From Lachnospiraceae bacterium AC2029 (GTDB lineage Bacteria; Bacillota; Clostridia; Lachnospirales; Lachnospiraceae): DNA of 64,000 bases. The translations under genes were made by a program, and so were the position numbers. The notes beneath the pieces are model-generated. The model worked only from the letters and a program-made list of their open reading frames with translations, had not been told where the DNA came from and searched no databases. Positions 1-30,244 of this stretch are shown here, in pieces. The stretch spans positions 248,001 to 312,000 of the forward strand of contig JNLK01000001.1 in the NCBI GenBank assembly GCA_000703065.1, written 5' to 3'. The first letter of the stretch is position 1, and the number at the start of each line of letters is the position of its first letter.

Positions 1-850
1 AATCCGAGCATACAAAGGGAAGGCCGGCAGCCATATACTCATACATCTTGATGGGCTGGGAATAGAAATAGTTCTCGATCGGCTTCAGGATACAGAGTCC
101 TGCCACCGATCTGCCGTAGAGTTCATTTACGCCGGGGCGGTCCAGACGACCCACATAGCTGACATTTCCCTGCTTTTCCACCGCATGATCCCCGGCGATG
201 ATCAGCTCTCCGGGTACCTTCTTCATTGCCTGCTTCATGATCTTCTCTCCGCGGTTCTCATCGATCCCGCCTGCATAGCAGACAACCGCTTCCCTTCCGG
301 AGAAGGGAGAATCGTGGAAGATCACGTCATCCAGCTTCGGATAGTTATTGACCGTAACGACCCTCTTCGCCCGGCCCTTGAACTTCTCCGCGATATGAGG
401 CGTTGCAGCCACTACTGCGTCCAGACGTTTTACCACGTGGGTCTCATATTTTCTGTACATGCCGGACACCAGCTTCCGGAGAAGCTTCGGGATCCAGTAT
501 TTATCCATGATCTGGCCGGGCACATCCTCATGGCTGTCGAAGATCACGGTCTTTCCGCGTCGCTTCAGCTTCAGTCCGTAAGGCAGAAGCTCCGGATCAT
601 GAAAATGATACACATCCGCATCCAGCTTCAGCGCCACAAGGTACACCTTCCTCGAGGTTCCCAGCATGCGCTTCAGGCGTCCCGTGGCAGGCTCTCCGAT
701 GCCCACCTGTCTTACGCCGAATTTCTTATATCTTGTTCCGCAGGCGATCTGATATGTCTTATAGCCTGCGGCAGCCAGCGATGCACATTCCTTATGAAAG
801 ATCCGAATATCCTCCTGCGGATGCGCACTTGTCAGATGACAAACCTTCAT
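1..850 (-). CDS. GT4-type glycosyltransferase, 3' end beyond the window
   Basis: About 283 residues are visible, beginning MKVCHLTSAHPQEDIRIFHK; the C-terminus runs off the left edge. The start, with its early Leu-Thr-Ser-xHis segment, is typical of GT4/GT-B enzymes that move a sugar from a nucleotide donor to a lipid-linked acceptor at the inner face of the membrane. Further in are HFHDPELLPYGLKLK and, near the visible end, PIKMYEYMAAGLPFVCSD, which matches the GT4 donor-binding region (E-x7-E type). The ATG has a good AAGGGG ribosome binding site and lies inside the preceding polymerase gene, giving a 59-bp overlap. Acceptor and donor cannot be read from sequence. It is probably one of several transferases for the repeat unit, with more genes likely to the left. 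Confidence 0.88.
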   Translation of the reverse strand, partial: MKVCHLTSAHPQEDIRIFHKECASLAAAGYKTYQIACGTRYKKFGVRQVGIGEPATGRLKRMLGTSRKVYLVALKLDADVYHFHDPELLPYGLKLKRRGKTVIFDSHEDVPGQIMDKYWIPKLLRKLVSGMYRKYETHVVKRLDAVVAATPHIAEKFKGRAKRVVTVNNYPKLDDVIFHDSPFSGREAVVCYAGGIDENRGEKIMKQAMKKVPGELIIAGDHAVEKQGNVSYVGRLDRPGVNELYGRSVAGLCILKPIENYFYSQPIKMYEYMAAGLPFVCSD

Positions 851-2186
851 AGAATTCCCCTTCCATTCGATCATTCGATATCGAGCCTTTTGCATCAAAG
901 CCATATCTCTCCCTTACCGTCTCCAGCATCAGACAGATCAGCGCGATCAGTGTCCAGTGGAAGCTGTTGGGAAGGTAGGAGCTGGATGCAAAGGATGTGA
1001 TCAGGTATGATGCGATCCAGATCACGCCCATTCTGCCCCACTCACGGATTTTTTCCTGCTCAAACTCATGATACATCCTGATCATTCTCCGGATCAGATA
1101 GATCAGAAGTCCAAGGAACAGAACAAGTATCACCAGTCCGTACTGGGACAGGATCTCCATCAGAAGACTGTGGGGGTTGATCAGATCCGTATCCTCCGGA
1201 TTCTCCGTGTAAAATGTGGAGAAGCCGCCGGGACCCAGTCCCAGGAAGCCGGAACGCCAGCCCGCCAGGATCGCATTCCGGTACAGGATCATACGGGAAT
1301 GCAGGGAGCCGTGGCCCTCCGAGGAATCCTTCACCAGCTCCATCGTACGGGATACCAGCATTCCGTCACTTTCCTTGTTGGTGAAATAAAGAACCAGAAG
1401 CAGCGCCACCGCCACCAGGGCGAACGCGATCAGCAGTCCCTTCTTTCTCCGGTCATAGTTCACCTGGAACAGTACATACAGGAACATGCCGAACAGGATC
1501 GCCAGATTACAGGTATTTGCATCATTTACACGGTTGATGTATACAACACAGAAGATCAGGATCCAGCCCGGATCGATATAGGTCCTGCGAAGCCGGATCC
1601 GGTATCGTCCGATCAACACCGGAAGCATCAGGGTGATCAGTGCCGAGAAATCATTTACATTGTACATGATACCGGTCGCCGAGTGCGGATCCACACGCCA
1701 TGCCACCTCGTTCTCCGGATCCTCAAACATGGAGGAGGACAGATGATTTGCCGTGATGATCTCATAGAATCCGAGAATGATCATCGCCACCAGTACCCAG
1801 AACAGGACCCGGAATACCTTTTCGATCTCCTCCTCCGTCAGACGGAGATTCGAAAGAATATAGAAGCTGAACAGTCCGCAGAGGATCGAAAAGAGCTCCC
1901 TGGATCCACGATTGATATCCGCATAGGGAGAAAGCCCCAGAAGGACCACGCCGTAAATGAGCCACGCCAGCAGAAATCCCATCCAGAGCACAAAACTCCG
2001 CCGTCCCGAGATCCGTACCTCGCCGCGGTAAATGATCAGCGTGAAAAGCGCAAGGATCACCACCGCAAGCCGGTAGAAGTTCAGGACGGAGCTGAATTTA
2101 TTTATTGAATTTCCAAGATTGGGCACAGCAGAAGCCGCCACCAGCAGTCCTGCCATGATCAGTCTGAGCCGAACCGGTTGTCTCAC
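792..2186 (-). CDS. O-antigen ligase / Wzy-like polymerase membrane protein
   Basis: This 464-residue protein is almost entirely hydrophobic, with about 10-12 membrane segments. It has a large loop and a C-terminal half carrying NPHSLLMEILSQYGL, which matches the His-containing signature of the Wzy_C/WaaL family. Such proteins polymerise lipid-linked repeat units or ligate finished glycans on the outer face of the membrane. Its start overlaps the stop of the upstream aminotransferase by 4 bp (ATGA), showing translational coupling. The last 20 or so codons overlap the next glycosyltransferase. A second polymerase-like protein is encoded at 22428-23600, so one of the two may act as a ligase or serve a separate polymer. 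Specificity is not predictable. Confidence 0.85.
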   Translation of the reverse strand: MRQPVRLRLIMAGLLVAASAVPNLGNSINKFSSVLNFYRLAVVILALFTLIIYRGEVRISGRRSFVLWMGFLLAWLIYGVVLLGLSPYADINRGSRELFSILCGLFSFYILSNLRLTEEEIEKVFRVLFWVLVAMIILGFYEIITANHLSSSMFEDPENEVAWRVDPHSATGIMYNVNDFSALITLMLPVLIGRYRIRLRRTYIDPGWILIFCVVYINRVNDANTCNLAILFGMFLYVLFQVNYDRRKKGLLIAFALVAVALLLVLYFTNKESDGMLVSRTMELVKDSSEGHGSLHSRMILYRNAILAGWRSGFLGLGPGGFSTFYTENPEDTDLINPHSLLMEILSQYGLVILVLFLGLLIYLIRRMIRMYHEFEQEKIREWGRMGVIWIASYLITSFASSSYLPNSFHWTLIALICLMLETVRERYGFDAKGSISNDRMEGEFYEGLSSDKCASAGGYSDLS

Positions 2187-3313
2187 TTCAAACTCCTTAA
2201 CACATCAGTTACTTTCTTTACTTCCTCTTCCGTCATATACGGATGCATCGGAAGACTGAGCACACACTGACAGAGCTGCTCCGTCACCGGACAATCTGCC
2301 CTGGCACTGTCCGTACCGGCGAAGGCCTCCTGCATATGCATGGGCTTCATATAGTATACCATGGAGGGGATCCCTGCCTCCTTAAGAGCAGCCTGAACCC
2401 CGTCTCTCGAAAGCCGCTCCGGAACCCGGATGGTAAACTGGGCCCAGCTGCTGACGAAGCCGTCCCGGATCGTCGGCAGAGCAAAATCCGTTCCTTTCAG
2501 CGCTGCGTCATACCATGCAGCCACCCGATTCACGGCATCCACCTCGGACGCCTCAAAGGCTTCCAGCTTCGGAAGCAGGATCGCGGCCTGCAGAGTATCC
2601 AGACGACTGTTCATGCCGAGACGGAGATTGTCATATTTACTCTCCCGGCTCTTTCCATGCACGCAAAGACTCCTGAGAAGAGCGTTGGTCTCATCACTGT
2701 CCGTGAAGATCGCGCCGCCGTCCCCGTAACAGCCCAGCGGCTTCGCCGGGAAGAAGCTTGTTGTTGAAATATCACCGAAGCTGCAGGCCTTACGTCCGCG
2801 GATCTCTCCGCCGAAGCCCTGCGCTCCGTCCTCCAGAAGCAGGAGCCCGTACTTCTCGCAGATCGGGCAGATCCTGTCATAATCCGCCGGCTGTCCGAAA
2901 AGGTCCACCGCCACCACGACACGGGGACGGTATACGCCCTCCTGCAGCACCGCTTCAACGGCCTGCTCCAGACGATCCGGATCCATATTGAAGGTATCCT
3001 TCTCCACATCCACAAATACCACCTGTGCCCCTACGGAAGCAGGTGACTCTCCGCTGGAGAAAAATGTAAAGTCCGGAACAAAGACCGCATCCTCCGGTCC
3101 CAGATCCCATGCCATGCATGCCAGGGTCAGCGCATCGGTCCCGTTTGCACAGGTCACACAATGCTTCACGCCCACATACGCAGCCAGCTTCTCCTCCAGC
3201 TCCCGAACCTCCGGTCCGGAAATAAACCGGGATGCGCCGATCACCTCCGCCATCCGCGCGTCGATCGAATCCTTAAGTACCTCATACTGCCGTTTCAGAT
3301 CTCGAAATTCCAC
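2183..3313 (-). CDS. wbpE: WbpE-like UDP-3-keto-uronate aminotransferase (DegT/DnrJ/EryC1/StrS family)
   Basis: This 376-residue PLP enzyme has the full DegT fold. CANGTDAL binds the cofactor phosphate, LLLEDGAQGFGG carries the Asp that contacts the pyridine nitrogen, and TSFFPAKPLGCYGDGGA carries the Schiff-base Lys. The last motif, plus GMNSRLDTLQAAILLPKLE and VLSLPMHPYM, is strikingly close to what I recall of Pseudomonas WbpE/Bordetella WlbC. Those enzymes aminate UDP-2-acetamido-3-keto-glucuronate using glutamate. The WbpA-, WbpB- and WbpD-like partners are at 10997-13963 in the same operon, so the pathway call rests on both motif and context. It is unusual that it sits about 8 kb from its partners, separated by wall-binding protein genes. 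Confidence 0.85.
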   Translation of the reverse strand: MEFRDLKRQYEVLKDSIDARMAEVIGASRFISGPEVRELEEKLAAYVGVKHCVTCANGTDALTLACMAWDLGPEDAVFVPDFTFFSSGESPASVGAQVVFVDVEKDTFNMDPDRLEQAVEAVLQEGVYRPRVVVAVDLFGQPADYDRICPICEKYGLLLLEDGAQGFGGEIRGRKACSFGDISTTSFFPAKPLGCYGDGGAIFTDSDETNALLRSLCVHGKSRESKYDNLRLGMNSRLDTLQAAILLPKLEAFEASEVDAVNRVAAWYDAALKGTDFALPTIRDGFVSSWAQFTIRVPERLSRDGVQAALKEAGIPSMVYYMKPMHMQEAFAGTDSARADCPVTEQLCQCVLSLPMHPYMTEEEVKKVTDVLRSLK

Positions 3314-3331
3314 TTGTCCTGTCCTCTTCCA

Positions 3332-6300
3332 TCAATTTGTTTCACCGATCCAGACTCCGTTGGACCGGAAGCTGTATTCCTTTCCTCCGATGGTCACCTT
3401 TCCGACTGCCATCCGGCCGTCCGGCATCAGGTAATACCATTTTCCGTCCAGCTTTCTCCAGCCCGTGACCATACGTCCGTCGGTATCAAAATAATACCAC
3501 CTGCCGGCGATGCTCTTCCATCCGCTGATCATATTTCCGGAGGAAGTAAAATAATACCAGTCACTTCCGCTGCTCACCCAGCCGGTGCTCATGGCACCCT
3601 CCGAAGAGAAGCAGTACCATTTTCCGTCGATCTTCTTCCAGCCGGTCTGCATCTGACCGCCGGAAGCGAAGTAATACCATTTTCCTCCGAGCTTTTTCCA
3701 TCCGGTCTGCATGATCCCGTCTGAATCCAGATAATACCAGGAACCTCCCTGTTTCTTCCAGCCCGTATAGGCACTTCCGTCTGAGGAAGCCAGATACCAT
3801 ATGGGTCCGGTATGATACCATCCGCCGGTGGAAAGCTTTCCGTTCGTCAGGAAAATGTACTGCTTTCCGCCGATCCTTCTCGGGGCAGTGACCATAACAC
3901 CTTTCCCGTCCAGATAGTACCAGGACGTTCCGTAATAAGCCCAGCCGGTCAGCATCCATCCGTCCGGAAGATAGTAATACTGATCCTCCCATTTGAGCCA
4001 GCCGGTGACCATCCTTCCGTCTTCTCCGAAATAATAGTCGGAGCCGTTGATATTCTTCCATCCACTGAACATGGATCCGTTTGCATCGAAATAATATCCG
4101 TCTTTTCCGATCTTCATAAAACCGGTACACATGATACCGGTGAAGGCATCCATGTAGTACTTCTTTCCATCATATTCCACCCAGCCCATTACCATGGCGC
4201 CGGAATTCTGATCGAAGAAGTAGGAATAGCCCTCCATCAGCAGCCAGCCGGTCAGCATCTCTCCTGTCTGCTTCAGGAAATACTTCTTTCCGTCCAGTTC
4301 CAGCAGTCCCCTGTACATGAAGCCGTCTTCCTGCAGATAATACTTCTCTCCGTCCACCTCAAGCCAGCCGGTGACCGGAACACCGTCTCTGAAATAATAA
4401 TAGTCCGCATAGGAAGTGCCAACGCCCACATTCTGTTTCCACATGACCCAGCCTTCCTTCTTCTTCTGCACACGGTTGATGCATTCCTCCGCGGATACAA
4501 GAGCTGCAGAAGTACCGGCTCCCGTCAGCTGGCTGACTGTCACGTCGTCTCCGAACTCAACTACGATTCCCTTATCGGCCGCACCTACCTCATAGGCGAT
4601 CGTGCCGAAATGAAGTCCGGTATAGTAAAGCGCCGCGAAATAGCCGCCGGTAGTGTCCATATTGGTGACGCTTTCTCTCTTACAGGTGGTGATAAAGCTT
4701 CCGGGCTGGAACAGATCCAGCATTTCCCTGGAGAAACCGAAGCTCGCGCCATGGTCACAGGACTTCATGATATCAATATTGCCGAAATCCCTGTATACCG
4801 CTCTGGCAACCTTCTGCTGCGTCTCAAACATGACATTCAGGTCTCCCGCGGTAAAAAGATTCCGGATCCCGTTGGAGATCACCGCCGCGATGGAGTTCGG
4901 ATTTTCATCCTTGGTATTGCCGTCGATCGGATAAAGATTGTATAAACGGATCTGAAAATTTCCGAAATAGAATTCCAGATAATCGTCATAATAATCATTC
5001 AGATCTCCGGGATTATAATCAGCATTGCTGATAAAATCTCTCTTTTCAAGCTCGGCAAGGACTTCATCATAATCTGCGACCGTCTGCGGTCCGTCCGTTG
5101 CCTTCTGTCCCTGACTGACATCGATCACGGTACCGCCGCGATCCAGGATCGCCTGCCTTGCCGCATAATCGTAAGCCTGGGTATGCCAGGAATCTTCCAT
5201 AACGATATCACCCAGGTCATCATGCTGGGTATTGATATGATAATAAGCCTTCTTCAGGTAGACCGTATTCTCATCGATCAGATAGTGTATACCGGTTTCG
5301 TCCTCAACAAGAAGCTCCGCGATGTCCGGAATACCTCCGCTGTGGTCGGAATGAGCATGGGACGTTACGATAAAGTCAACATGCGTCACGCCCAGTGTTT
5401 CGATCATATAGATGGCCGCGTCTCTTCCGTTCCGGTCCTGAACCTGACAGGAATATGCGGCAATGCTGCCGTCGTCGTAAAGATAAGGCAGATCATACAC
5501 CGTTCCGTCCTCATCCACAATGGTGTCCGTATACCGGTTTCCCGTATCGATCAGGCCCCAGTGACCGTCAGATTCCACGATCAGAAGATCGGAATTGGCA
5601 ACTCCGCCGGCCGCATCCCAGAACCAGACACGGTCTCCCTTTGTGAATACGGATTGTCCAAGGGGGATCACACGTCCGGAAAGCTCTGTGGCATATCCTT
5701 CGGAATCAAACTCCCACCAGATCTCATCGATCTTACGGAATTCATCCGTCACACGTTCACCGTCTTCAATGTAATAAACCCTTCCGGTTTCTTCCTCCGT
5801 ATGCCAGCCGTCTTCCTCCGGCTCCTCGGTCTCCTCGTCCGGATCCCCGGGATCCTCGTCCGACTTCACCGATGTCTGAGACGGTGCCGTTTCCTTCAGA
5901 CTGCTGTTCTTCTCATCGGAACCGCCCTCTTCCCGAGCGTCCTCCTCCGGAAGCTTCTCCTCCGTCTCCGTCAGGCCCTGATCCCCGTTTTCCGCGTCAG
6001 GATCTGTAATATCCTGATCATCGCTCTTTGCGTCAGGATCCGTAAGCTCCTGCTCATCGACCTTTGCATCGGGATCCGTAAGCCCCTGTTCATTTCCGTC
6101 TTGGTCAGAACCGGAGATTCCCTGATCCCCGTTCTCAGGATCGTCAGGACCCTGTTCATTGCCATCCGTCACCGGATCCGAGCAGCTCTCATCCGTATCG
6201 TCAGATGTCAGATCGACCGGTTCCAAACCTTCTCTGTTCCGATCCGTCTCTCCCGAACCCCCTTCGGACACACCAAGGGAATCGGATGGCATAACGCCAT

Positions 6301-6400
6301 CCGACCCGGGAGTCTCTGCGTACACTCTTCCGCCGAACATCAGCGTGCATACGCAGATCGCGATCAGAATGATCCAGTTTTTCCTACTGCTGTTTCGCAT
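3332..6400 (-). CDS. Secreted metallo-beta-lactamase-fold protein with choline-binding-type repeats (Pce/CbpE-like)
   Basis: This 1022-residue secreted protein has four parts. Residues 1-29 are a signal peptide (cleavage near VYAE). Residues about 30-200 are an acidic low-complexity linker with Asp-Pro-Asp and Gln-Gly repeats. Residues about 245-640 are a metallo-beta-lactamase fold with the metal motif HAHSDH at 348-353, then AGDLN and a later CDHGAS His. From about 650 to the end are tandem aromatic repeats of the form GWxxxxGxWYYFxxxGxMxTG (CW_binding_1). An MBL domain with choline-binding repeats is the architecture of pneumococcal Pce, which removes phosphocholine from teichoic acid. Here the repeats are C-terminal and the linker N-terminal. 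The LicD gene in the same operon makes an opposing esterase role attractive, but this is inference; another phosphodiesterase or nuclease activity is possible. Confidence 0.82.
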   Translation of the reverse strand: MRNSSRKNWIILIAICVCTLMFGGRVYAETPGSDGVMPSDSLGVSEGGSGETDRNREGLEPVDLTSDDTDESCSDPVTDGNEQGPDDPENGDQGISGSDQDGNEQGLTDPDAKVDEQELTDPDAKSDDQDITDPDAENGDQGLTETEEKLPEEDAREEGGSDEKNSSLKETAPSQTSVKSDEDPGDPDEETEEPEEDGWHTEEETGRVYYIEDGERVTDEFRKIDEIWWEFDSEGYATELSGRVIPLGQSVFTKGDRVWFWDAAGGVANSDLLIVESDGHWGLIDTGNRYTDTIVDEDGTVYDLPYLYDDGSIAAYSCQVQDRNGRDAAIYMIETLGVTHVDFIVTSHAHSDHSGGIPDIAELLVEDETGIHYLIDENTVYLKKAYYHINTQHDDLGDIVMEDSWHTQAYDYAARQAILDRGGTVIDVSQGQKATDGPQTVADYDEVLAELEKRDFISNADYNPGDLNDYYDDYLEFYFGNFQIRLYNLYPIDGNTKDENPNSIAAVISNGIRNLFTAGDLNVMFETQQKVARAVYRDFGNIDIMKSCDHGASFGFSREMLDLFQPGSFITTCKRESVTNMDTTGGYFAALYYTGLHFGTIAYEVGAADKGIVVEFGDDVTVSQLTGAGTSAALVSAEECINRVQKKKEGWVMWKQNVGVGTSYADYYYFRDGVPVTGWLEVDGEKYYLQEDGFMYRGLLELDGKKYFLKQTGEMLTGWLLMEGYSYFFDQNSGAMVMGWVEYDGKKYYMDAFTGIMCTGFMKIGKDGYYFDANGSMFSGWKNINGSDYYFGEDGRMVTGWLKWEDQYYYLPDGWMLTGWAYYGTSWYYLDGKGVMVTAPRRIGGKQYIFLTNGKLSTGGWYHTGPIWYLASSDGSAYTGWKKQGGSWYYLDSDGIMQTGWKKLGGKWYYFASGGQMQTGWKKIDGKWYCFSSEGAMSTGWVSSGSDWYYFTSSGNMISGWKSIAGRWYYFDTDGRMVTGWRKLDGKWYYLMPDGRMAVGKVTIGGKEYSFRSNGVWIGETN

Positions 6401-6433
6401 AATCCTACCTGTTATTTTATAATCTTATAACAA

Positions 6434-8785: not shown

Positions 8786-8824
8786 GCGTTCTTCCTTTCG
8801 TGTTGTCTGTCTCTGGTTTATATC

Positions 8825-10312: not shown

Positions 10313-10320
10313 GTGTCCTC

Positions 10321-11518: not shown

Positions 11519-11541
11519 GCTTCCGATCCCGTCCCGTGCTC

Positions 11542-12630: not shown

Positions 12631-12646
12631 CCGTCTTCCGTCTCCT

Positions 12647-13963: not shown

Positions 13964-14030
13964 TTTCCGTTATCTCCTTGTTCTACCCGTTCCTTTCCGG
14001 CTGCGGGTTTATGATTCTTGATTTGTATTC

Positions 14031-18438: not shown

Positions 18439-18479
18439 TACTGACCTCCTTTTGCTTACATCACAAAAGATATTTCTCA

Positions 18480-19559: not shown

Positions 19560-19570
19560 AGGCAGTTACC

Positions 19571-20962: not shown

Positions 20963-21051
20963 ACTGTCCCTCCGTCACAAAATACATCCTCTCCCGGTTC
21001 ACCCTGCATTTTCGTGCCACCCCCTGCGGCACATGTCATGCATGGTGTTCC

Positions 21052-22431
21052 TTACTGTGAAAGCTCTATCACGCCAAGTGCGCCGATCACTTCCACGTCA
21101 TTCTCCCGGCAGAACTTCAGCAGATCCGCCGCCTTCTGACGATTTCCTCCCTGAAGCTGCTCCACCAGGATGCTCTTTCCTGCTGCGATCATCTGCTCCA
21201 GTGCCTTACTGTCGGTTCCGACCTTTTCCGTCTCAAGTAATCTGATATCCTGCTTTGCAAGTGCTGCTTTCAGATTCTCCACTGCATCCGCAACGGCATC
21301 ACCGCCGGTGGAGGAAAGCACGGCCAGCTCGGAGATCTCATGATTCTTACAATATGCGCCGATCCGTACCGCCGCATAATTGACGCTCTCCTCACCGGAT
21401 CCAAACAGGGAATCCTTCAGTTCCATCCTCAGGAAGAAGCTGCGGATCGGATGCTTCTTCTTGCCCTCCGTCATTACCAGGCCAAGATCGCGAAGTCCGA
21501 GATTGTCGCTGTAATCCAGCGGCGTACGGTTCTTCAGGGAAATGTAGAGAAGCAGGAAGCAGATTCCCACGCCGGCTACCAGTCCCACCATCCAGCCTGC
21601 CACCAGCAGACGCTTGGAGATCTTCACCTTTGTTGTCTTTGCGTCCGAGGTTTCGTCCTTCAGATAGCCTGTCAGTTTCCGGAAATATGCCTGCTGCGCT
21701 TCCGAGAATCCCGTGTAGGCATTCATATATGCCTTACGGTAGGTAACCATGTTGGTGTATACGGATTTCTGTGTGCTGTCCGTGGTGGAATCATACAGGT
21801 TGACGGTTCCTTCCTTCATGGCCTTGATGTGGAGCCGGGACTCCGCCTTCATCAGCTGATCCATATACGCTTCCGTAACCGTCCGCACATCCTTCGGAAG
21901 ATCCGGATACTCACTGTAGCTGATCACTCCCAGAGTGAACTCACCGCCGCCGGAGTTGTTGCACCAAACCAGCTCCTTCATGAAGGCATGTTCGGCATAA
22001 TCCGCCCGGATCTCAGCCAGATCACGGATATAAAGTCCGTCGTTGATATAAGCTCTGAGCATCTGAAGGTAGCTGTTCTCCACCGTTCCGTTGGAGGTAT
22101 CCGAAGCTCCCGTATCCAGCAGGATCTGATACTCAACGATCACCTGCTCCTCACTCTTCGAATTCAGCTTAAGGAGCGGAGAAGAATTCAGGTAGGCTTC
22201 CAGCTCCGTTGCATTCCGATACTGAAGCGCCGCATTTTCCACATCCGCGCGTTCCGCCTCGGAAAGAGATGTTCCGTCATCCTTTACGGCTGTTTTTGCC
22301 GCCTTTCTGTCACTGTAGTATTTGTAGCCGGCCAGCGCGGCTCCGAAAAGAACTGCCGTAAGGAGAATGATCCAGATCCTCCTCACCATGAAAAATATCA
22401 GGCTGCGCATGCCGATCCTTCTTGTGTTCAT
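21052..22431 (-). CDS. Second Wzz/Wzc-like chain-length determinant with degenerate kinase-like tail
   Basis: This 459-residue protein has the same plan as the protein at 8825-10312. It has a membrane segment at about 15-38, a long extracytoplasmic helical region, a second membrane segment near 275-300, and a cytoplasmic tail. The tail ends in GKSILVEQLQGGNRQKAADL and VEVIGALGVIELSQ. The tail resembles the final strands of BY-kinase folds but I see no Walker A motif or Tyr-rich end. It overlaps the polymerase gene upstream by 4 bp (ATGA), which supports a Wzz-Wzy pair. Having two such pairs in one locus suggests two polymers or two length classes. Confidence 0.8.
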   Translation of the reverse strand: MNTRRIGMRSLIFFMVRRIWIILLTAVLFGAALAGYKYYSDRKAAKTAVKDDGTSLSEAERADVENAALQYRNATELEAYLNSSPLLKLNSKSEEQVIVEYQILLDTGASDTSNGTVENSYLQMLRAYINDGLYIRDLAEIRADYAEHAFMKELVWCNNSGGGEFTLGVISYSEYPDLPKDVRTVTEAYMDQLMKAESRLHIKAMKEGTVNLYDSTTDSTQKSVYTNMVTYRKAYMNAYTGFSEAQQAYFRKLTGYLKDETSDAKTTKVKISKRLLVAGWMVGLVAGVGICFLLLYISLKNRTPLDYSDNLGLRDLGLVMTEGKKKHPIRSFFLRMELKDSLFGSGEESVNYAAVRIGAYCKNHEISELAVLSSTGGDAVADAVENLKAALAKQDIRLLETEKVGTDSKALEQMIAAGKSILVEQLQGGNRQKAADLLKFCRENDVEVIGALGVIELSQ

Positions 22432-23600
22432 CTATAAACTCCTCTCTCTGTTTCCTTAAAATGATCCGTATCCTTCACCTGATCCGTAACAAAATCCGAC
22501 AGGATCAGTAACGCGATCAGAACCGCGGATAAACGGTTTCCGCCAAACATATGATCCGTCATTCCACGGAAGCATATGGTGATGATACAGCAAAGGTACA
22601 GGCCCTTTCTCAAACGTATGGCGCGTACACATGCCCTTACGATCAGAACCAGCAGGCCGAGAAGCCCCAGGATCCCCATATAGGCATGCACGAACAGGAA
22701 CGAGTTGTGCAGGTTTCCGCTGTAATGCTGTACCCACCATAACTGACTCAGATCCGCGCCGAACAGGAATCCCGTAGTTGATTTCCAGGCCGCCGTTATA
22801 TACTCTATCCAACAGTCGATCCGTCCTCCGCCGTCCAGCCCCTTGTTCAGGAACCGGTCCACCGCATAAAGCGACGATCCGTTCTTCGATACCGCCAGAA
22901 AGGCGATCAGCGCCACCGGTATCATGATGATCACCAGCAGGATCATCAGCAGCACCCTGTCTCTTCTGGACGCCTTATCCGCAAAGAACCGGTTCAGGAT
23001 CACTCCTGCCAGAAGCAGCGTGCAGGCAAGCACTCCGCCCCGGCCTCCCATCAGGAAGCTCAGAAGCCAGATGACGATCGCCGGATGCAGGGCACATTTC
23101 TTCCCTCTCACATTCATCAGCGAATAGTACAGAAGCCCCGGCGCCATCAGGAAGATGGACACGTAGTTGTTGGATGACGTCACATAGACTCTCGAGCTTA
23201 CTCCGAACCTCACCATGTGGATCAGGACCACCAAAGCATTCATGTATACGGAAATGATGTAGGCCCGTTCATCCACCTGCTCGCTGATCATCAGCACCGC
23301 CAGGAAGAAGGACGCCATCATGATCATTGCCTTAAGAGGCGTCTGATTTCCCACCAGCAGCCAGTTGGCGAAGCTGAGCACTCCCGCTGCCACCGCAAGG
23401 ATGGTGACCCGGTAGATCCCCAGCGGCTTTCTCATACAAAACAGCGCCACGACTCCCACCAGGATCGACAGATAGTAGATCGCACTGGACGCGCTCCCCG
23501 GATAAAGGTTCACGGCTATGATGGCTGTAAAGAACAGAACAACTGCGACGGAAGGTCCCAACCGATAGAGATCGATATATCTGCATTTACTCTCCGTCAT
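22428..23600 (-). CDS. Wzy-like oligosaccharide repeat-unit polymerase
   Basis: This 390-residue polytopic protein has about 10-11 hydrophobic segments and little else. Residues around 300-330 read HYSGNLHNSFLFVHAYMGIL, which fits the His-Asn-Ser signature of O-antigen polymerase/ligase proteins, followed by another run of membrane helices. It would link repeat units on the outer membrane leaflet. It is 4 bp downstream of the GT52-like gene and coupled by ATGA to the chain-length gene. Sequence divergence in this class makes the call depend on topology, the short motif and context. Confidence 0.8.
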   Translation of the reverse strand: MTESKCRYIDLYRLGPSVAVVLFFTAIIAVNLYPGSASSAIYYLSILVGVVALFCMRKPLGIYRVTILAVAAGVLSFANWLLVGNQTPLKAMIMMASFFLAVLMISEQVDERAYIISVYMNALVVLIHMVRFGVSSRVYVTSSNNYVSIFLMAPGLLYYSLMNVRGKKCALHPAIVIWLLSFLMGGRGGVLACTLLLAGVILNRFFADKASRRDRVLLMILLVIIMIPVALIAFLAVSKNGSSLYAVDRFLNKGLDGGGRIDCWIEYITAAWKSTTGFLFGADLSQLWWVQHYSGNLHNSFLFVHAYMGILGLLGLLVLIVRACVRAIRLRKGLYLCCIITICFRGMTDHMFGGNRLSAVLIALLILSDFVTDQVKDTDHFKETERGVYR

Positions 23601-23604
23601 GGGA

Positions 23605-24747
23605 TCACATTTCCTCCTCTTTTCCGGACTCCAGCTCGGTCCGGATCGTCCGGATCAGCTCTTTCAGCTCCTCTTCATTCTCCGGAATACACACCCGGTC
23701 GGGATCACGGTACTCCTCCCGGATCAGGGTGAAGAAACGGTCGGAAGCAGCGTCATCTCTTCCTTCTCTCCGGAACAGATGATGCAGGAGAACGATCCTC
23801 GGCTCCTGATCCATAAGCAGCTTCGGCATAAATGTCGCCGTGGAATTCAGGGTGATCAGTGTCATCCGGTCAGGTTCGGATGCCAGAGAAATGATCTCGA
23901 AGGGCATCGTTGAAAACGGATATTCACGGATCCCCGTTTTATTCTCGCTCTTGTCACGCGGATGACGCTTGATCATCACCCGGTCGGAACCGAACTCCTC
24001 CTTTATTTCGTTGAAGAGACGGACCATGGCGTCACAGTCCTTCTGTGAAACGCCTTCCTTCATTCCGTCCAGGATCACCACAGGTTCGCGGATCCCCTTC
24101 TCCTCACTGATCTCGAAGATCTCCCGGAGATGCTCTCTCACCTTTTCGTTATCACGGAATTTCGGCAGGTGATAAACCGGGATCTCATTTTCCGGATGCA
24201 TCTTCATGAACATATCCGGTGCATACATGTAGATCCTTCTCGGGCTCCGCTGCTTTCTCGAACCAAGCATGAGCCGTCTGCTCATCCGGTCCGGAATGCT
24301 GCTCTCATACAGCGACTTGTCGTCGTAGCTTCCTTCTCCGTCATCGAAGAAATCCACCCGGGTACGGATCTCCTTCTTCGAATAATAGAATCTCAGCAGA
24401 TTTGCGATAAAAACATTATGGGTGGCATATAATGTCCTGTACAGCCGGTCCGGCATAAGGATCTCCGCAGCCGCATCCTCTATATGCCTGTAAAGGTACA
24501 GGATGTTCCTGTATCTGGCGACCTTGTTCGTCACCTCCCGGACCATCCGGACCGATTTCAGATTGTTCAGAACACGGACCGTGTCAAAGATCTCTCTCTT
24601 CCGGATCTTCTCAGCCAGCTCCTCCGCGCCCTCAAACTGCGGATCAATATACAGATCTGCAAGTTCCTTCCGGTTCACGGCCAGGCTGATCGCCGACATG
24701 ATCTGAAACGGGGTCGTACACACGTACATGGCATCCATTTTCTTCAT
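23605..24747 (-). CDS. GT52-like glycosyltransferase
   Basis: This 380-residue protein opens with DAMYVCTTPFQIMSAISLAV, the Thr-Pro-Phe-Gln start typical of the GT52/polysialyltransferase-like group. That group uses a GT-B fold and often CMP-activated donors. Other segments compatible with the fold are RTRVDFFDDGEGSYDD (an Asp-Asp-Gly-Glu motif common in this group), VILDGMKEGVSQKD and MIKRHPRDK, where the His-Pro is conserved in sialyltransferase-like families. No CMP-sialic-acid synthesis gene is visible, so the donor is unknown. It lies between the LicD and polymerase genes with gaps of 18 and 4 bp and presumably modifies or extends the repeat unit. Confidence 0.72.
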   Translation of the reverse strand: MKKMDAMYVCTTPFQIMSAISLAVNRKELADLYIDPQFEGAEELAEKIRKREIFDTVRVLNNLKSVRMVREVTNKVARYRNILYLYRHIEDAAAEILMPDRLYRTLYATHNVFIANLLRFYYSKKEIRTRVDFFDDGEGSYDDKSLYESSIPDRMSRRLMLGSRKQRSPRRIYMYAPDMFMKMHPENEIPVYHLPKFRDNEKVREHLREIFEISEEKGIREPVVILDGMKEGVSQKDCDAMVRLFNEIKEEFGSDRVMIKRHPRDKSENKTGIREYPFSTMPFEIISLASEPDRMTLITLNSTATFMPKLLMDQEPRIVLLHHLFRREGRDDAASDRFFTLIREEYRDPDRVCIPENEEELKELIRTIRTELESGKEEEM

Positions 24748-24765
24748 CGTTCCAACCGTCCTTCA

Positions 24766-25593
24766 TCAGTCTAATTCGAGATATTCCCGATAACTCTTTG
24801 TGGTATCTATGATCACACCCGCATCCAGATTCGGATCCACCTGCTTCTCCTTCGGGGGAAGCTTCATAAAATCACCGTACCTCCTGGTCAGGTACTTCTC
24901 AGGCTGCTCGGGCCCGTAGAAATAATGGCCTTCGAACTCGATGGGTGTCGGCTTTCCGAACCACTCTCTCGGATAGGTGATCGCGGAGAACAGCGAAACG
25001 TCTTCGCCGTAGTAGTCAAGGATCTCCTTTCCCTTCGGCACTGCCCGCAGCTTGTGATCCATACGCCGGATCATCTTATCACGGTACTTTCCCTTGAAGA
25101 TCGTAAGCAGGACCTTCGACATGATCTTGGTTGCCTTCCCGTGATTCTGTGGGATGTACCCTGCCACAAGCACCTTGTAGATATGGGACCGCCAGATGTT
25201 CAGCAGCAGCCCCGCCCTGGTCTCCGGCGCATTGTAGAAGGGATAGATGTCCATCGCGATCCCCTGATTGAAATCGAGATGCTTGTATTCCTCCCACACG
25301 TAGGCGGTTTCCGAATCCCGCAGCTTATATGCGATGGATACGTAATTGGGATCCGTTCTTCTGGACTGTACGAAGTATCTGGGTCCGAATTCCTTCTGGT
25401 ACTTCGTAAGCTTGATGGCATCCTCCACCGGCATGGCCACGTCGATGTCATGGTCCCAGGGAATGAAGCCCTTGTGCCGCACCGCGCCGATGCAGGTACC
25501 GAAGGCCAGATAATACCGAAGATGGTGCCTCCGGCAGACCTCGTCAAATTTTATCAGGAGGTTCATCAGAACCTCTTTTCCGTCATCCTTCAT
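24766..25593 (-). CDS. LicD-family phosphotransferase
   Basis: This 275-residue protein has the LicD/fukutin nucleotidyltransferase-like core: RYYLAFGTCIGAVRHKGFIP, then WDHDIDVAMP. The paired metal-binding Asp residues of DID are kept; many relatives read WDDDID, so the His is a small deviation. Pneumococcal LicD1/LicD2 and Haemophilus LicD move phosphocholine from CDP-choline to a cell-surface glycan. Other LicD relatives transfer other phospho-groups, so the substrate is open. The locus also encodes eight choline-binding-type repeat proteins and a Pce-like esterase, which favours a phosphocholine-like decoration. No LicA/LicB/LicC genes for choline uptake and activation are in the window. 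Gaps are 16 bp upstream and 18 bp downstream, so it is in the operon. Confidence 0.87.
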   Translation of the reverse strand: MKDDGKEVLMNLLIKFDEVCRRHHLRYYLAFGTCIGAVRHKGFIPWDHDIDVAMPVEDAIKLTKYQKEFGPRYFVQSRRTDPNYVSIAYKLRDSETAYVWEEYKHLDFNQGIAMDIYPFYNAPETRAGLLLNIWRSHIYKVLVAGYIPQNHGKATKIMSKVLLTIFKGKYRDKMIRRMDHKLRAVPKGKEILDYYGEDVSLFSAITYPREWFGKPTPIEFEGHYFYGPEQPEKYLTRRYGDFMKLPPKEKQVDPNLDAGVIIDTTKSYREYLELD

Positions 25594-25609
25594 TTCTTCC
25601 TCCGTCTGA

Positions 25610-28096
25610 TCACTCGAAACATCTGTGGATCAGTTCAATGATAATGTCCTGCTCTTCCCGGGTCATCTTGTTATCACTCGGCAGGCAGAGTCCGCGTTCG
25701 AAAATATCCGTTCCCACATCCTGTGCGATTCCCTCATCGATATAGGCGTTGCTTCTCGCACGACCGTTTCCGGTAGCGGTGATATACGGGTGGGTCTGGT
25801 AAATGGGCTGCATATGCATGGGCTTCCAGATGGGACGCCCCTCTGCGTTGTACGCAGCCAGAGTATCCAGGATCTCCGACGGACAGCTCTTGCCGGGCTC
25901 CGACTGATACAGCACCGTCTTATCACTCCGCACCTGTTTGCACATGGCCTCGGGACGGATGGTGATGCAGGACAGCCAGAAATTCGGTTCGGAACAGCTC
26001 TCATAGGGGTTCATATCCACCGGAAGATCTGCAAGTCCTTCCCTGTACCGCTGATAGATGGCCTTCTTCTGTGCGATGTGCTCCTCGAGATACGGCAGCT
26101 GGCCGCGGATCACGCCTGCGATCACATTGCTCATCCGGTAGTTGTATCCCATCTCCTCGTGCTGATACCAGGGTGCATCCTCACGGCTCTGGGTGGACCA
26201 TTTCCGGACCTTATTTGCGATCTCCTCATCGTCGGTCAGCAGCATGCCGCCGCAGGAACCGGTGATGATCTTATTTCCGTTTGCGGAAAGGACGCCGGCC
26301 GGCATTCCGAAATTACCGGTCTGTACTCCCTTGTAGCTTGCGCCGAAGGACTCGGCCGCATCCTCAATGATCAGTGCATTGTGGCGGTCGCAGACGGCTC
26401 TGATCTCATCCATCTTGGCGGGAGTGCCGTACAAATGCGCCAGCATCACGATCTTTACATCCGGGTACATCTCAAATGCCTTTTCCAGGGCGACCGGATC
26501 CATGTTCCAGGTATCGTACTCCGAATCCACGAAGATTGCCTCGCCGCCCTCATAGGCGATGGGGTTGACCGTCGCATCGAAGGTCATGTCGCTGCAGAAG
26601 ACCTTTCTGCCTGCCAGCGCTCCCCGGATGGGATCCGGCTGGCCGTAGAGCTGCTCTGCCGCAAGCTTGACTGCCAGATGCAGTGCCGCGGTTCCCGCAG
26701 ACAGTCCGACACAGTATTTTCGTCCGACCTTCTCCGCCGTCATCCGTTCCACCTCGTCGATATTCTCACCGACGGTGGACATCCAGTTGGTGGCGAAGGC
26801 TTCCTGCATGTAGGTCATCTCAGGACCGTGCATGGTGGGGGAAGACAGCCATACCTTCTTCTCGAAGGGCCGGATCTCCGGCTTCTTCTTCGGCTTCGGG
26901 GTAACTCCCAGAACAGCACCGAAGCTTTCAATCACGTACTCCAGCTGTTCGTCCGTCATACAGGTATTCAGCGGAAGTGTCAGTTCGTTCTGATACTGGC
27001 CGAAGGCATTCGGGAAATTCTCGATGGAGAATCCCATATTCCGGTAAGCCGTGTACATGGGCAGCGGCTTGTAATGCACATTCAGGGCCACACCGTATCC
27101 GGACATCTTCCGGATGATCTCATTTCTCTTCTCTTCTCCGATCCCGTTCACACGGACCATGTAGAGATGCTTGCTGGAATCCGTTGCAACCTCCGGAGAC
27201 TGGATCGCCCGGATCGGGAAGTCCTCAAAGGCCTCGTTGTACCGGTCCACAAGCTGCTGTCTTCTCTTCAGCGTCTCCTCATAACGGTCCAGCTGCGTCA
27301 GACCCGCTGCCGCCATCATGTCCGTCATATTGCACTTGAAGGCCGGCTGAAGGATGTCGTATTCCCAGCCGCCCAGCTGTGATTTCTCCAGCGCATCCTT
27401 GCTCTGTCCGTGAAGGGTCAGGATCATCAGTTTCCGGTACAGCTCGTCATCAGAACATCCGGGGATGGATTTCCAGACCAGCGCGCCGCCCTCGGCGGTC
27501 GTCAGGTTCTTTACGGCATGGAAGGAAAATGTGGTAAAGTCTGCGATCTCACCGCACATCTTTCCTTTCCATCTGGCTCCGAGGGAATGTGCCGCATCCG
27601 AAACGACGGCGATCCTTCCCAGCTTGCTCTGGATCTCATTCTTCGGTTGAAAGAGGGATTTCTTTTCTTCGACGACCCGATAGATGGTGTCGTAATCACA
27701 TACGACTCCTGCCAGGTCTACAGGAATGATCGCCTTGGTCCGCTCGGTGATGGCATCCGACAGCTTATCGTAATCCATCTCGTAAGAATCCGGCTGGGTA
27801 TCCACCAAAACGATCTTGGCGCCCACGTGACAGATCACGCTGGCACTGGCGGTAAAGGTATATGCAGAGGTGATCACTTCATCTCCCTCGCCGATCCCAA
27901 GAAGGCGAAGCGCCATTTCCAGACAGGCGGTTGCGGAAGAAAGGCATGCAGCCCTGGATACGTGTACATACTCTGCGATCCTGCGTTCAAACTCCTTGGT
28001 CCTCGGGCCGGTGGTGATCCAGCCGGAACGCAGGGTTTCTGCTACGGCAACGATATCAGTCTCTCTGATATCCGGTGGTGAAAAAGGTATCTTCAT
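25610..28096 (-). CDS. Natural fusion of two complete DegT/DnrJ-family sugar aminotransferases
   Basis: The 828 residues comprise two full PLP aminotransferases in one frame. Domain 1 (about 1-395) has SAYTFTASA, VVSDAAHSLGA with the pyridine-binding Asp167, and FHAVKNLTTAEGG with the Schiff-base Lys196. A Lys/Pro-rich linker (about 398-412, TPKPKKKPE) follows. Domain 2 (about 413-828) has LSAGTAALHL, LIIEDAAESFGA with Asp579, and SANGNKIITGSCGG with Lys609. Both copies keep the key residues, so both should be active. They differ strongly from each other and are not a recent duplication. Members of the family aminate 4-keto or 3-keto nucleotide sugars. The PglF-like dehydratase upstream suggests UDP-4-keto-6-deoxy-HexNAc as one substrate. 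It is the first gene after the locus promoter. Confidence 0.88.
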   Translation of the reverse strand: MKIPFSPPDIRETDIVAVAETLRSGWITTGPRTKEFERRIAEYVHVSRAACLSSATACLEMALRLLGIGEGDEVITSAYTFTASASVICHVGAKIVLVDTQPDSYEMDYDKLSDAITERTKAIIPVDLAGVVCDYDTIYRVVEEKKSLFQPKNEIQSKLGRIAVVSDAAHSLGARWKGKMCGEIADFTTFSFHAVKNLTTAEGGALVWKSIPGCSDDELYRKLMILTLHGQSKDALEKSQLGGWEYDILQPAFKCNMTDMMAAAGLTQLDRYEETLKRRQQLVDRYNEAFEDFPIRAIQSPEVATDSSKHLYMVRVNGIGEEKRNEIIRKMSGYGVALNVHYKPLPMYTAYRNMGFSIENFPNAFGQYQNELTLPLNTCMTDEQLEYVIESFGAVLGVTPKPKKKPEIRPFEKKVWLSSPTMHGPEMTYMQEAFATNWMSTVGENIDEVERMTAEKVGRKYCVGLSAGTAALHLAVKLAAEQLYGQPDPIRGALAGRKVFCSDMTFDATVNPIAYEGGEAIFVDSEYDTWNMDPVALEKAFEMYPDVKIVMLAHLYGTPAKMDEIRAVCDRHNALIIEDAAESFGASYKGVQTGNFGMPAGVLSANGNKIITGSCGGMLLTDDEEIANKVRKWSTQSREDAPWYQHEEMGYNYRMSNVIAGVIRGQLPYLEEHIAQKKAIYQRYREGLADLPVDMNPYESCSEPNFWLSCITIRPEAMCKQVRSDKTVLYQSEPGKSCPSEILDTLAAYNAEGRPIWKPMHMQPIYQTHPYITATGNGRARSNAYIDEGIAQDVGTDIFERGLCLPSDNKMTREEQDIIIELIHRCFE

Positions 28097-28203
28097 TCGA
28101 CGTTCCTTCTTTCTGACATCTTTGTGAAATCCATCTGACAGGGCACATTCGGCGTCGCCGTCCGGCCCCCTTATCCGTCTACGACCCGTCAGATTGCATA
28201 CTT

Positions 28204-28240
28204 AGGAACGATTATATCATATTTATATGTATTTTGCACT
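28204..28240 (-). promoter_or_regulatory. Promoter of the polysaccharide operon (extended -10)
   Basis: On the minus strand TGATATAAT (hexamer at 28211-28216) is a textbook extended -10 element in an AT-rich patch. The -35 region is weak, which extended -10 promoters tolerate. It lies downstream of the capD terminator and 115 bp from the fused aminotransferase start. The untranslated leader of about 105 bases contains GC-rich self-complementary stretches (around 28150-28175) but no riboswitch I recognise. Confidence 0.65.
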
Positions 28241-28292
28241 AAAAAAATGCCGAAATTCCTCATAAATTCAAGGTTTTTTTGTTAATCCGGCA

Positions 28293-28326
28293 CAAAAAAC
28301 AGCCGCTTTGGAAAGCAGCTGTTTTT
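28293..28326 (-). terminator. Rho-independent terminator after capD
   Basis: Arms 28299-28309 and 28312-28322 pair (ACAGCYGCTTT type, one mismatch) around a two-base loop, flanked by a T-tract on the minus strand. It begins 8 bp past the capD stop and separates that gene from the operon below. A run of T on the other side may let it act in both directions. Confidence 0.8.
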
Positions 28327-30208: not shown

Positions 30209-30244
30209 GTCGAAATAAGCAGCCTCCAAAATGACACTTGCGAC

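What the first reader, a model, noticed from the sequence alone, without database searches (positions are those of the whole stretch)
1..28300. Candidate coat system: glycan synthesis, LicD, Pce-like esterase and repeat-carrying wall proteins in one locus
Seen: a LicD enzyme (24766-25593), an MBL protein with choline-binding-type repeats (3332-6400), and four more repeat proteins (GH25, long repeat-only, CAP, GH5), interleaved on one strand with Wzy/Wzz, sugar and transferase genes. Known: in pneumococcus LicD adds phosphocholine to teichoic acid, choline-binding proteins dock on it and Pce removes it, but those genes are scattered. Inference: here synthesis, decoration, removal and the binding proteome are packaged together, possibly in a commensal clostridium. 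The polymer group may be phosphocholine or another phospho-group.
Basis: partly seen in the sequence, partly recalled or inferred. Interest (0 to 1): 0.85.

Follow-up and report, generated by a model that had tools for sequence, protein, structure and literature searches.

The report
Phosphocholine-type coat locus, rumen Lachnospiraceae
A rumen-type bacterium carries one conserved gene block that appears to build a surface sugar polymer, tag it with phosphocholine, trim the tags, and make proteins that dock on them, a pneumococcus-like scheme whose choline-activating genes lie elsewhere in the genome.

Summary
Minus-strand genes at window 792-30229 include LicD, a metallo-beta-lactamase protein whose catalytic and C-terminal repeat models each match pneumococcal Pce best among solved structures, four more choline-repeat proteins, and a Wzy-type glycan cluster.

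Packaging is only partly right. Those choline genes lie about 0.55 and 1.64 Mb away, and at least 81 repeat-protein ORFs are spread over the genome.

Still, the block is conserved in 10 of 61 same-genus genomes, one clade. In one further genome, RUG13615, Pce-like, LicC-LicA, BCCT, LicC, dehydratase, aminotransferase, LicD, GT52-like and Wzy-like genes lie in one array.

Most likely LicD decorates a Wzy-made glycan with phosphocholine, the repeat proteins dock on it, and the Pce-like enzyme trims it. Untested: the group LicD transfers, esterase activity, choline binding. Phylogeny-aware tests were not significant. A new variant of a known kind.

The parts
792..2186 (-). Wzy-1 / O-antigen-ligase family membrane protein
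   Evidence: Pfam Wzy_C 3.5e-11, over cut-off
2183..3313 (-). DegT-type sugar aminotransferase, next gene after the Pce-like one in 10 of 10 block-bearing genomes
   Evidence: Pfam 9.9e-100; synteny
3332..6400 (-). Pce-like protein: N-terminal hydrophobic signal-like segment, acidic stretch, MBL catalytic domain (about aa 245-640), C-terminal choline-binding repeats
   Evidence: phmmer Pce 1wra 6.6e-11; Foldseek ranks 1-3 are Pce; 8 of 16 regex-defined repeats with two Trp; repeat model best match 2bib 4.2e-22
6434..8785 (-). choline-repeat protein with C-terminal GH25 lysozyme domain
   Evidence: Pfam GH25 2.9e-33 plus Choline_bind_1/2/3; next to the Pce-like gene in 9 of 9 genomes whose contig reaches
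8825..10312 (-). Wzz-like chain-length protein 1 (label inferred)
   Evidence: no Pfam match; 24% identical to 21052-22431
10321..11016 (-). initiating sugar-phosphate transferase (PGT)
   Evidence: Pfam Bac_transf 1.1e-56
10997..11518 (-). hexapeptide sugar acetyltransferase
   Evidence: Pfam Hexapep 1.8e-20; NeuD/PglB/VioB family 6.7e-25, under cut-off
11542..12630 (-). GFO/IDH/MocA-type dehydrogenase
   Evidence: Pfam 6.2e-32
12647..13963 (-). nucleotide-sugar dehydrogenase
   Evidence: NCBIfam TIGR03026 over cut-off
14031..15311 (-). GT4-type glycosyltransferase
   Evidence: Pfam
15304..18480 (-). long repeat-only choline-binding-type protein
   Evidence: Pfam Choline_bind_3 4.6e-41
18480..19559 (-). 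CAP-domain choline-repeat protein
   Evidence: Pfam CAP 1.1e-16 plus repeats
19571..20962 (-). GH5 choline-repeat protein
   Evidence: Pfam Cellulase 6.3e-61, Choline_bind_2 7.2e-10
21052..22431 (-). Wzz-like chain-length protein 2 (label inferred)
   Evidence: no Pfam match; similar to 8825-10312
22428..23600 (-). Wzy-2 polymerase/ligase family
   Evidence: Pfam Wzy_C 3.5e-7, 30.6 bits against cut-off 31.7
23605..24747 (-). GT52-family glycosyltransferase
   Evidence: Pfam 9e-9
24766..25593 (-). LicD phosphotransferase, one of two Pfam LicD matches in the genome
   Evidence: Pfam 9.1e-37; genome search; orthologs 71-82% in 9 congeners, next tier 60-63% in 3
25610..28096 (-). double DegT aminotransferase (two domains fused)
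   Evidence: Pfam, two stretches; PseC and LegC-family whole-protein scores, summed over two stretches, exceed the cut-offs
28334..30229 (-). CapD/PglF-type nucleotide-sugar dehydratase
   Evidence: Pfam Polysacc_synt_2 3.8e-124

Best explanation
The block is a Wzx/Wzy-type surface-glycan locus of a rumen-type Lachnospiraceae. Choline is taken up by a BCCT-family transporter, phosphorylated and CDP-activated by the LicC-LicA fusions and LicC, all encoded elsewhere in the chromosome. The locus LicD moves phosphocholine onto the repeat unit that starts with a CapD/DegT-made amino sugar; Wzy-2, with the Wzz-like protein, polymerises it. The secreted repeat proteins of the locus (lysozyme, CAP, GH5, repeat-only) and many others dock on the phosphocholine. 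The Pce-like MBL enzyme, itself docked, removes some of it and so sets how much is displayed. Shown here: homology, conserved gene order, presence of choline-route homologs. Inferred: substrate, chemistry, docking.
For: Catalytic domain: best sequence and fold matches are Pce; HxHSDH, Asp and His invariant in alignments of 15 and of 20. Repeats: two-Trp motif in all five proteins; C-terminal repeats of the Pce-like protein match Pce, then CbpJ/CbpF. Choline route: LicC best PDB hit 1jyk 6.4e-34; two LicC-LicA fusions hit 1jyk and choline kinase 4r77; one keeps Tyr197, Trp251, Trp254, Tyr268, Val178 and Thr29 of LicA but not Glu213 (alignment, residues from PMC4364537 passages); the genome's only BCCT match begins 65 bases past the end of that fusion's match. 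Linkage elsewhere: G210 (RUG13615) has Pce-CBP, LicC-LicA, BCCT, LicC, CapD, DegT, PGT, LicD, GT52-like and Wzy-2-like genes in one array. L143 has a Pce-like CBP with LicC-like and BCCT genes (on the other strand) within 12.7 kb. Congeners G153 and G190 have a LicC-LicA, LicC, BCCT, LicD run. Block kept in 10 genomes.
Against: No choline gene lies in the locus. LicD enzymes also move other groups: LicD3 adds ribitol-phosphate (PMC4649388 passage). The window LicD reads WDHDID, as do the other 9 of the 10 printed of 13 given, where several other LicDs read WDDDID. In G169 and G172 its ortholog is tandem with the second LicD, with no repeat protein in the 5 and 12 kb read. In G210 a CTP_transf_like gene lies 2 kb from LicD, so another CDP group is possible. 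Around the second-group Pce-like genes of five congeners (G153, G161, G190, G177, G189) no LicC, LicA or LicD match was seen in the stretches read (BCCT not tested there); likewise L138, L140-L142, L145, L148 and L151. One of the 10 block carriers, G197 (74% complete), has only a weak LicC-LicA match, 1.1e-28. Pce and LicD orthologs each changed once on the RecA tree, so their match is one event; choline genes against repeat abundance gave 7 independent pairs, 3.8 the same way, 0 opposite, median p 0.125. Half the repeats of the Pce-like protein lack the second Trp and resemble glucan-binding/CROP repeats.
Confidence: 0.64

Rival explanations
1. The locus LicD transfers another phospho-group (ribitol-, glycerol-, ethanolamine- or aminoethyl-phosphate), and the genome's second LicD puts phosphocholine on another polymer; the Pce-like protein sits in this locus but acts on that other polymer or on both.
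For: LicD3 is a ribitol-phosphate transferase (PMC4649388 passage). The window LicD's only PDB match at E up to 1 is fukutin-related protein, 3.7e-5. Variant WDHDID motif. CTP_transf_like gene near LicD in G210. LicC's second-best PDB hit is 6pd1, a nucleotidyl transferase/aminotransferase class V.
Against: In G210 a LicD whose best match among 8 LicDs tried is the window's is in one array with a BCCT transporter, LicC-LicA and LicC. I recognised no glycerol- or ribitol-activation gene in the block by Pfam, but did not search for such genes genome-wide.
Confidence: 0.21
2. Co-location is incidental: in a genome with at least 81 repeat-protein ORFs a few sit by chance in a glycan locus, and the block is kept together only by shared ancestry.
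For: Denser repeat-protein clusters exist elsewhere. By the top-150 list the locus is not enriched, p 0.12. Pce and LicD orthologs arose once on the tree. Second-group Pce-like genes lie outside such a block.
Against: The frame is kept over 10 genomes although Wzx and the downstream GT fall to 23-34% identity in some of them and Wzy-1 varies from 47 to 62%. Pce-like genes sit near choline genes in L139/L297 and L143.
Confidence: 0.11
3. The repeats bind a carbohydrate rather than choline, as toxin CROPs or glucan-binding repeats do, and the MBL domain hydrolyses some other phosphodiester.
For: Strong matches to CROP and glucansucrase repeats; TIGR04035 glucan-binding repeat over its cut-off; half the repeats of the Pce-like protein lack the second Trp.
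Against: Best fold matches of the C-terminal repeats are Pce, CbpJ and CbpF. Repeat-rich congeners are mostly those with choline genes: 29 of 30 with strong LicC-LicA against 4 of 31 without have at least 78 first-look candidates (threshold chosen after seeing the counts, not corrected for phylogeny).
Confidence: 0.04

Closest known systems
Pneumococcal lic/teichoic-acid system with LicA/B/C/D1/D2, choline-binding proteins and Pce (CbpE)
   Same: Homologs of choline kinase, cytidylyltransferase and LicD, a choline-family transporter, repeat-docked proteins and a repeat-docked MBL esterase. The first sugar there is AATGal (PMC4649388 passages); an amino-trideoxy first sugar is plausible here from CapD and DegT (inference).
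   Different: Here LicD, the Pce-like gene and five repeat proteins sit inside a Wzy-type glycan locus; LicA and LicC are fused behind a winged-helix domain; the transporter is BCCT.
Erysipelothrix rhusiopathiae phosphocholine-modified capsule with SpaA/CbpB
   Same: Phosphocholine on a capsule and choline-binding surface proteins; modelled SpaA resembles Pce (PMC7083082 and PMC7174600 passages).
   Different: Other family. The primary paper (PMC3486058) was not held, so its gene layout was not compared.
Clostridium saccharoperbutylacetonicum choline teichoic acid with 66 choline-binding proteins
   Same: A clostridium with choline in the wall and a very large set of such proteins (PMC3593318, whole text).
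   Different: Low-G+C Clostridium; no locus with LicD, Pce-like and repeat proteins is described in that text.
Butyrivibrio cell-associated polysaccharidases with PF01473 repeats
   Same: Rumen Lachnospiraceae whose secreted enzymes end in the same repeat family (PMC2914790 and PMC5716241 passages).
   Different: Repeats are said to anchor to peptidoglycan; the word choline has 0 occurrences in the main text of either paper.

Membership tests
Pce / CbpE phosphorylcholine esterase | MBL-fold catalytic module homologous to Pce | tested here: met
   phmmer 6.6e-11; Foldseek ranks 1-3 are Pce, 1.5e-17 to 2.3e-17, next ComEC 5.4e-11; model pLDDT 84.8
Pce / CbpE phosphorylcholine esterase | binuclear-zinc ligand motifs HxHxDH, Asp, His | tested here: met
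   H133 H135 D137 H138, D305, H335 (domain numbering) invariant in alignments of 15 and 20; aligned with Pce. Which residues bind zinc is recalled.
Pce / CbpE phosphorylcholine esterase | C-terminal choline-binding module | tested here: met
   Pfam; fold best match 2bib 4.2e-22
Pce / CbpE phosphorylcholine esterase | hydrolysis of phosphocholine from the wall polymer | not testable with these tools
   needs enzyme assay
LicD phosphocholine transferase | LicD domain | tested here: met
   Pfam 9.1e-37
LicD phosphocholine transferase | linked to CDP-choline genes | tested here: inconclusive
   not linked in this genome; a homolog linked in G210; other LicDs linked in congeners
LicD phosphocholine transferase | moves phosphocholine, not another phospho-group | not testable with these tools
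   the family includes a ribitol-phosphate transferase (PMC4649388 passage)
Lic-1 CDP-choline route | choline kinase (LicA) and phosphocholine cytidylyltransferase (LicC) homologs | tested here: met
   LicA pocket residues kept except Glu213 in one fusion
Lic-1 CDP-choline route | choline transporter | tested here: inconclusive
   one BCCT (betaine/carnitine/choline family) match in the genome, 2.7e-126, right after a LicC-LicA fusion; substrate inferred; the LicB family was not searched
Choline-binding proteins | two Trp of one repeat, often with an aromatic of the next, forming the choline site (PMC4929436 passages) | tested here: met
   two-Trp motif counts among regex-defined repeats: Pce-like 8 of 16, GH25 7 of 12, long 5 of 16, CAP 4 of 4, GH5 1 of 2. 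Geometry and third aromatic not measured.
Choline-binding proteins | choline affinity | not testable with these tools
   needs choline resin
Wzx/Wzy-dependent glycan locus | initiating PGT, Wzy, Wzx, glycosyltransferases | tested here: met
   Wzx and GT in L018 just left of the window
Wzx/Wzy-dependent glycan locus | Wzz chain-length regulator | tested here: inconclusive
   two candidates without a Pfam match

The most novel reading that the evidence does not exclude
A self-contained 'tag, dock and trim' coat module: the locus makes a polymer and also its own phosphocholine tag transferase, tag-removing enzyme and dedicated docked hydrolases, so that flippase and polymerase can be exchanged between species while the docking code stays the same. 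In rumen Lachnospiraceae this phosphocholine code, not peptidoglycan, would be the ligand of the PF01473 repeats that hold secreted enzymes on the cell.
Probability: 0.34. Interest if true: 0.76.

Novelty: new variant of a known kind. Interest (0 to 1): 0.62.

Why it matters
PF01473 repeats hold large enzymes on rumen Lachnospiraceae, and the passages I read name peptidoglycan, not choline, as the anchor (PMC2914790, PMC5716241). A published survey of phosphocholine genes covers 26 species, and words beginning clostridi-, firmicutes or eubacteri- have 0 occurrences in its main text (PMC10434233, abstract and passages). If this locus works as inferred, phosphocholine decoration, docking and trimming extend to rumen Clostridia known here mostly from metagenomes. 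The wall ligand would then be directly testable with choline resin and 31P NMR, and one single-copy esterase gene would be the handle on display. Phosphocholine on a harmless gut coat would also bear on why hosts make anti-phosphocholine antibodies (recalled, not searched).

Tried and rejected
Rejected: full packaging in this genome (choline genes elsewhere). Rejected as independent evidence: Fisher tests of Pce against LicD orthologs (10/0/3/48, p 3e-9) and of any Pce match against strong LicC-LicA (23/3/7/28, p 9e-8), because on a RecA tree of 57 of 61 genomes the full Pce orthologs and the window-type LicD each changed once. Strong LicC-LicA against repeat abundance (30 vs 31 genomes, medians 245.5 and 37, Mann-Whitney p 7e-10) uses first-look counts, most of them unscored, and fell to a non-significant median p of 0.125 with independent pairs. 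One search lists 36 of 61 genomes with a LicC-LicA match; for that contrast I counted as lacking it the six with weaker matches (G159, G166, G167, G173, G185, G197). The second Pce group was defined loosely (E up to 0.001) and includes short weak matches (G169, G182). The tree left out G170, G185 and G201 (no RecA match) and G173 (short match).

Led nowhere: Pfam Lactamase_B on the window protein. The family sample of 150 genomes gave 4 weak short matches besides the window's own. Around the second-group Pce-like genes of five congeners no LicC, LicA or LicD match was seen (a sixth, G155, was fetched but not annotated). G211 and G212 showed no LicC, LicA or BCCT match in the stretches read around their LicDs; G213's LicD was not looked at. 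The scan of 49 further repeat proteins found LRR, Ig-like, lectin, CHAP, YkuD, subtilase and other domains and no Lactamase_B among the 25 families shown of 29. Literature searches (listings, open-access PMC only) listed no paper on a Pce, LicD and repeat-protein locus in Lachnospiraceae; subscription papers are not covered, and most listings were capped.

Considered: toxin CROP likeness. It is repeat homology; the catalytic part's significant PDB matches are Pce only.

Full report
WHERE IT IS. The window is G000:C1:248001-312000 of a single-contig 3.86-Mb genome, about 52% G+C in the window. No name is given. The named carriers of the block are MAGs labelled uncultured Lachnospiraceae (RUG10588, RUG14168) and Eubacterium sp. 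from goat omasum (RGIG2873).

THE OBSERVATION. Minus-strand genes from 792 to 30229 are: Wzy-1, DegT aminotransferase, Pce-like repeat protein, GH25 repeat protein, a Wzz-like protein, PGT, hexapeptide acetyltransferase, MocA-type dehydrogenase, nucleotide-sugar dehydrogenase, GT4, long repeat protein, CAP repeat protein, GH5 repeat protein, a second Wzz-like protein, Wzy-2, GT52, LicD, a double DegT protein and a CapD-type dehydratase. The cluster continues left of the window with a GT and a Wzx flippase at about G000:245200-247780, and further left lie repeat proteins including a YkuD one. All five repeat proteins begin with a hydrophobic, signal-like stretch (by eye; no signal predictor was run).

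THE PCE-LIKE PROTEIN. Pfam Lactamase_B does not ring, but the catalytic part hits Pce at 6.6e-11 by phmmer. Its AlphaFold model (pLDDT 84.8) matches Pce structures first (1.5e-17 to 2.3e-17) and the ComEC MBL domain next (5.4e-11). TM-scores of 0.52-0.55 by query length and 18% identity mark a distant, enlarged relative: 434 residues were modelled against 305-308 in 1wra. HxHSDH, Asp and His are invariant in alignments of 15 and of 20 sequences down to 26% identity. The C-terminal repeat model (pLDDT 94.7) matches Pce first (4.2e-22), then CbpJ and CbpF, with toxin CROP repeats behind (from 3.7e-19). It is the only such match in the genome.

THE REPEATS. A review puts the choline site between two Trp of one repeat and, often, a Tyr of the next (PMC4929436 passages). 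Among regex-defined repeats the two-Trp motif occurs in 8 of 16 of the Pce-like protein, 7 of 12 of GH25, 5 of 16 of the long protein, 4 of 4 of CAP and 1 of 2 of GH5. Part of the Pce-like array lacks the second Trp and resembles glucan-binding/CROP repeats, so not every repeat need bind choline.

THE CHOLINE ROUTE. LicC-like L015:11263-11982 has the pneumococcal CTP:phosphocholine cytidylyltransferase 1jyk as best PDB hit (6.4e-34). Two LicC-LicA fusions hit 1jyk and the choline kinase 4r77. The one in L014 keeps Tyr197, Trp251, Trp254, Tyr268, Val178 and Thr29 of LicA (alignment; residue roles from PMC4364537 passages; placed by eye); Glu213 is Tyr. The other keeps aromatic residues at the four aromatic positions (by eye). 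The genome's only BCCT-family match begins 65 bases past the L014 fusion's match. The genome has two Pfam LicD matches. These choline genes are at about 0.83 and 1.92 Mb; the locus is at 0.25-0.28 Mb.

CONSERVATION. Of 61 genomes of the genus (this one included), 26 have a match to the catalytic domain; 10 including this one have full orthologs, the other nine at 49-63% identity, the rest weaker or partial matches. The same 10 have the closest LicD orthologs (71-82% in nine); three more genomes have 60-63%. In all 10 LicD lies in the cluster of CapD, DegT-DegT, GT52 and Wzy-2 as far as the contigs reach (order changed in G174; the contig of G199 ends in GT52); in all 10 the DegT gene follows the Pce-like gene; GH25-CBP precedes it in 9 of 9 where the contig reaches. 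One contig holds both LicD and the Pce-like gene in the window genome, G183, G195 and G164; in the other six they lie on different contigs. The nucleotide-sugar dehydrogenase (95-96% in three) and DegT-DegT (79-84% in nine) are well kept, while Wzx is 23-24% in three and 67-78% in two of five, and the downstream GT 28-34% in five and 59-61% in two of seven. This looks like a conserved frame with exchangeable export and transfer genes (inference).

ANOTHER GENOME CLOSES THE GAP. L139/L297-L298 (contig of MAG RUG13615, handle G210; not among the 61; its kinship is not told) carries, on one strand apart from a 638-aa gene between LicC and CapD: Pce-like CBP, LicC-LicA, BCCT, LicC, CapD (50%), DegT (72% to the C half of the window's double DegT), PGT, an ATP-grasp/HAD protein, LicD (35%, 8e-55), a GT52-like protein (29%, 2e-48; no Pfam match of its own), an aminotransferase, a CTP_transf_like/MocA protein, a Wzy-2-like protein (30%, 3e-56) and a Wzx. 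The order CapD, DegT, PGT, LicD, GT52, Wzy-2 is that of G183 and G164, with extra genes in between. Among eight LicDs tried, the window's is the best match to the G210 one. L143 has a Pce-like CBP and, mostly on the other strand, repeat proteins, a Wzy_C protein below cut-off, a LicC-like and a BCCT gene in 12.7 kb. Congeners G153 and G190 have a LicC-LicA, LicC, BCCT, LicD run; G202, G194 and G158 have such genes within about 12 kb.

RESULTS AGAINST OR WEAK. Seven other Pce-homolog loci (L138, L140-L142, L145, L148, L151) showed no LicC, LicA or LicD match in the stretch fetched, nor did the surroundings of second-group Pce-like genes in five congeners; BCCT was not in those comparisons. On a RecA tree of 57 of 61 genomes the full Pce orthologs and the window-type LicD each changed once, so their perfect match is one event; the node of the ten has support 84/29, that of the thirteen 100/98. 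Genomes with strong LicC-LicA have far more repeat candidates, but independent pairs gave 3.8 of 7 the same way, none opposite, median p 0.125. Exceptions: G160, G178, G196 and G197 are repeat-rich without a strong LicC-LicA match, and G191 is the reverse. A group (G188, G166, G204, G157) nested among carriers lacks strong LicC-LicA and any Pce match and has few repeats, which fits joint loss, though three of the four are only 65-87% complete. Repeat proteins are genome-wide: at least 81 ORFs; 49 scanned with Pfam all match Choline_bind_1 and _3 and carry mixed other domains.

MECHANISM, STEP BY STEP. Uptake and CDP-activation: supported by homology. Transfer by the locus LicD to a repeat unit begun by a CapD/DegT sugar on a PGT carrier: inferred from gene order, backed by G210. 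A PGT next to LicD, present in G183, G164, G174, G209 and G198, is missing in the window and was not seen in G195, G187, G199 and G197. So either the other PGT (10321) serves or the block makes one composite polymer; two Wzy and two Wzz-like genes leave one or two polymers open. Docking: inferred from repeats. Trimming: inferred from Pce likeness; in pneumococcus Pce removes about 20% of phosphocholine (PMC4929436 passage).

AGAINST WHAT IS KNOWN. It works like the pneumococcal system (PMC13385700 and PMC4649388 passages), and like the phosphocholine-modified capsule of Erysipelothrix with its choline-binding SpaA (PMC7174600 and PMC7083082 passages). Clostridium saccharoperbutylacetonicum has choline teichoic acid and 66 such proteins (PMC3593318, whole text). 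What is different is the standing arrangement of LicD, esterase and a fixed set of docked proteins inside a Wzy-type locus across a clade, and the fused LicC-LicA with BCCT. I file the MBL protein as a Pce-family member by sequence and fold, activity untested. I do not file LicD as a proven phosphocholine transferase.

Noticed in passing
window 38104-39966 (-): A MATE-family transporter fused to a HATPase_c_2 (anti-sigma-kinase-like, recalled) domain, 72-74% identical in G164 and G199 near LeuA. An odd transporter-kinase fusion beside a polymer locus.
   Followed up: partly
window 25610-28096 (-): Two DegT aminotransferases fused in one 828-aa protein, PseC-like and LegC-like; G210 has a single-domain version 72% identical to the C half.
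   Followed up: partly
L014:8683-10533 and L015:9490-11259: LicC-LicA fusions begin with a winged-helix HTH_24 domain, so the choline-activating enzyme may also regulate.
   Followed up: no
L215 (G169) and L216 (G172): Window-type LicD and an ortholog of the second LicD stand in tandem, without a repeat protein in the stretch read; the pair seems to have been split in the window's clade.
   Followed up: partly
window 35097-36449, 46641-47669 and 47704-50223 (-): Three more choline-repeat proteins, one with a transglutaminase-like domain, outside the glycan block.
   Followed up: no
G000:C1:3718019-3732782: Densest repeat-protein cluster of the top-150 list: 6 ORFs in 28 kb.
   Followed up: partly
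G188, G166, G204, G157: A group without strong LicC-LicA, any Pce match or many repeats while its neighbours on the RecA tree have them: a candidate joint loss.
   Followed up: no
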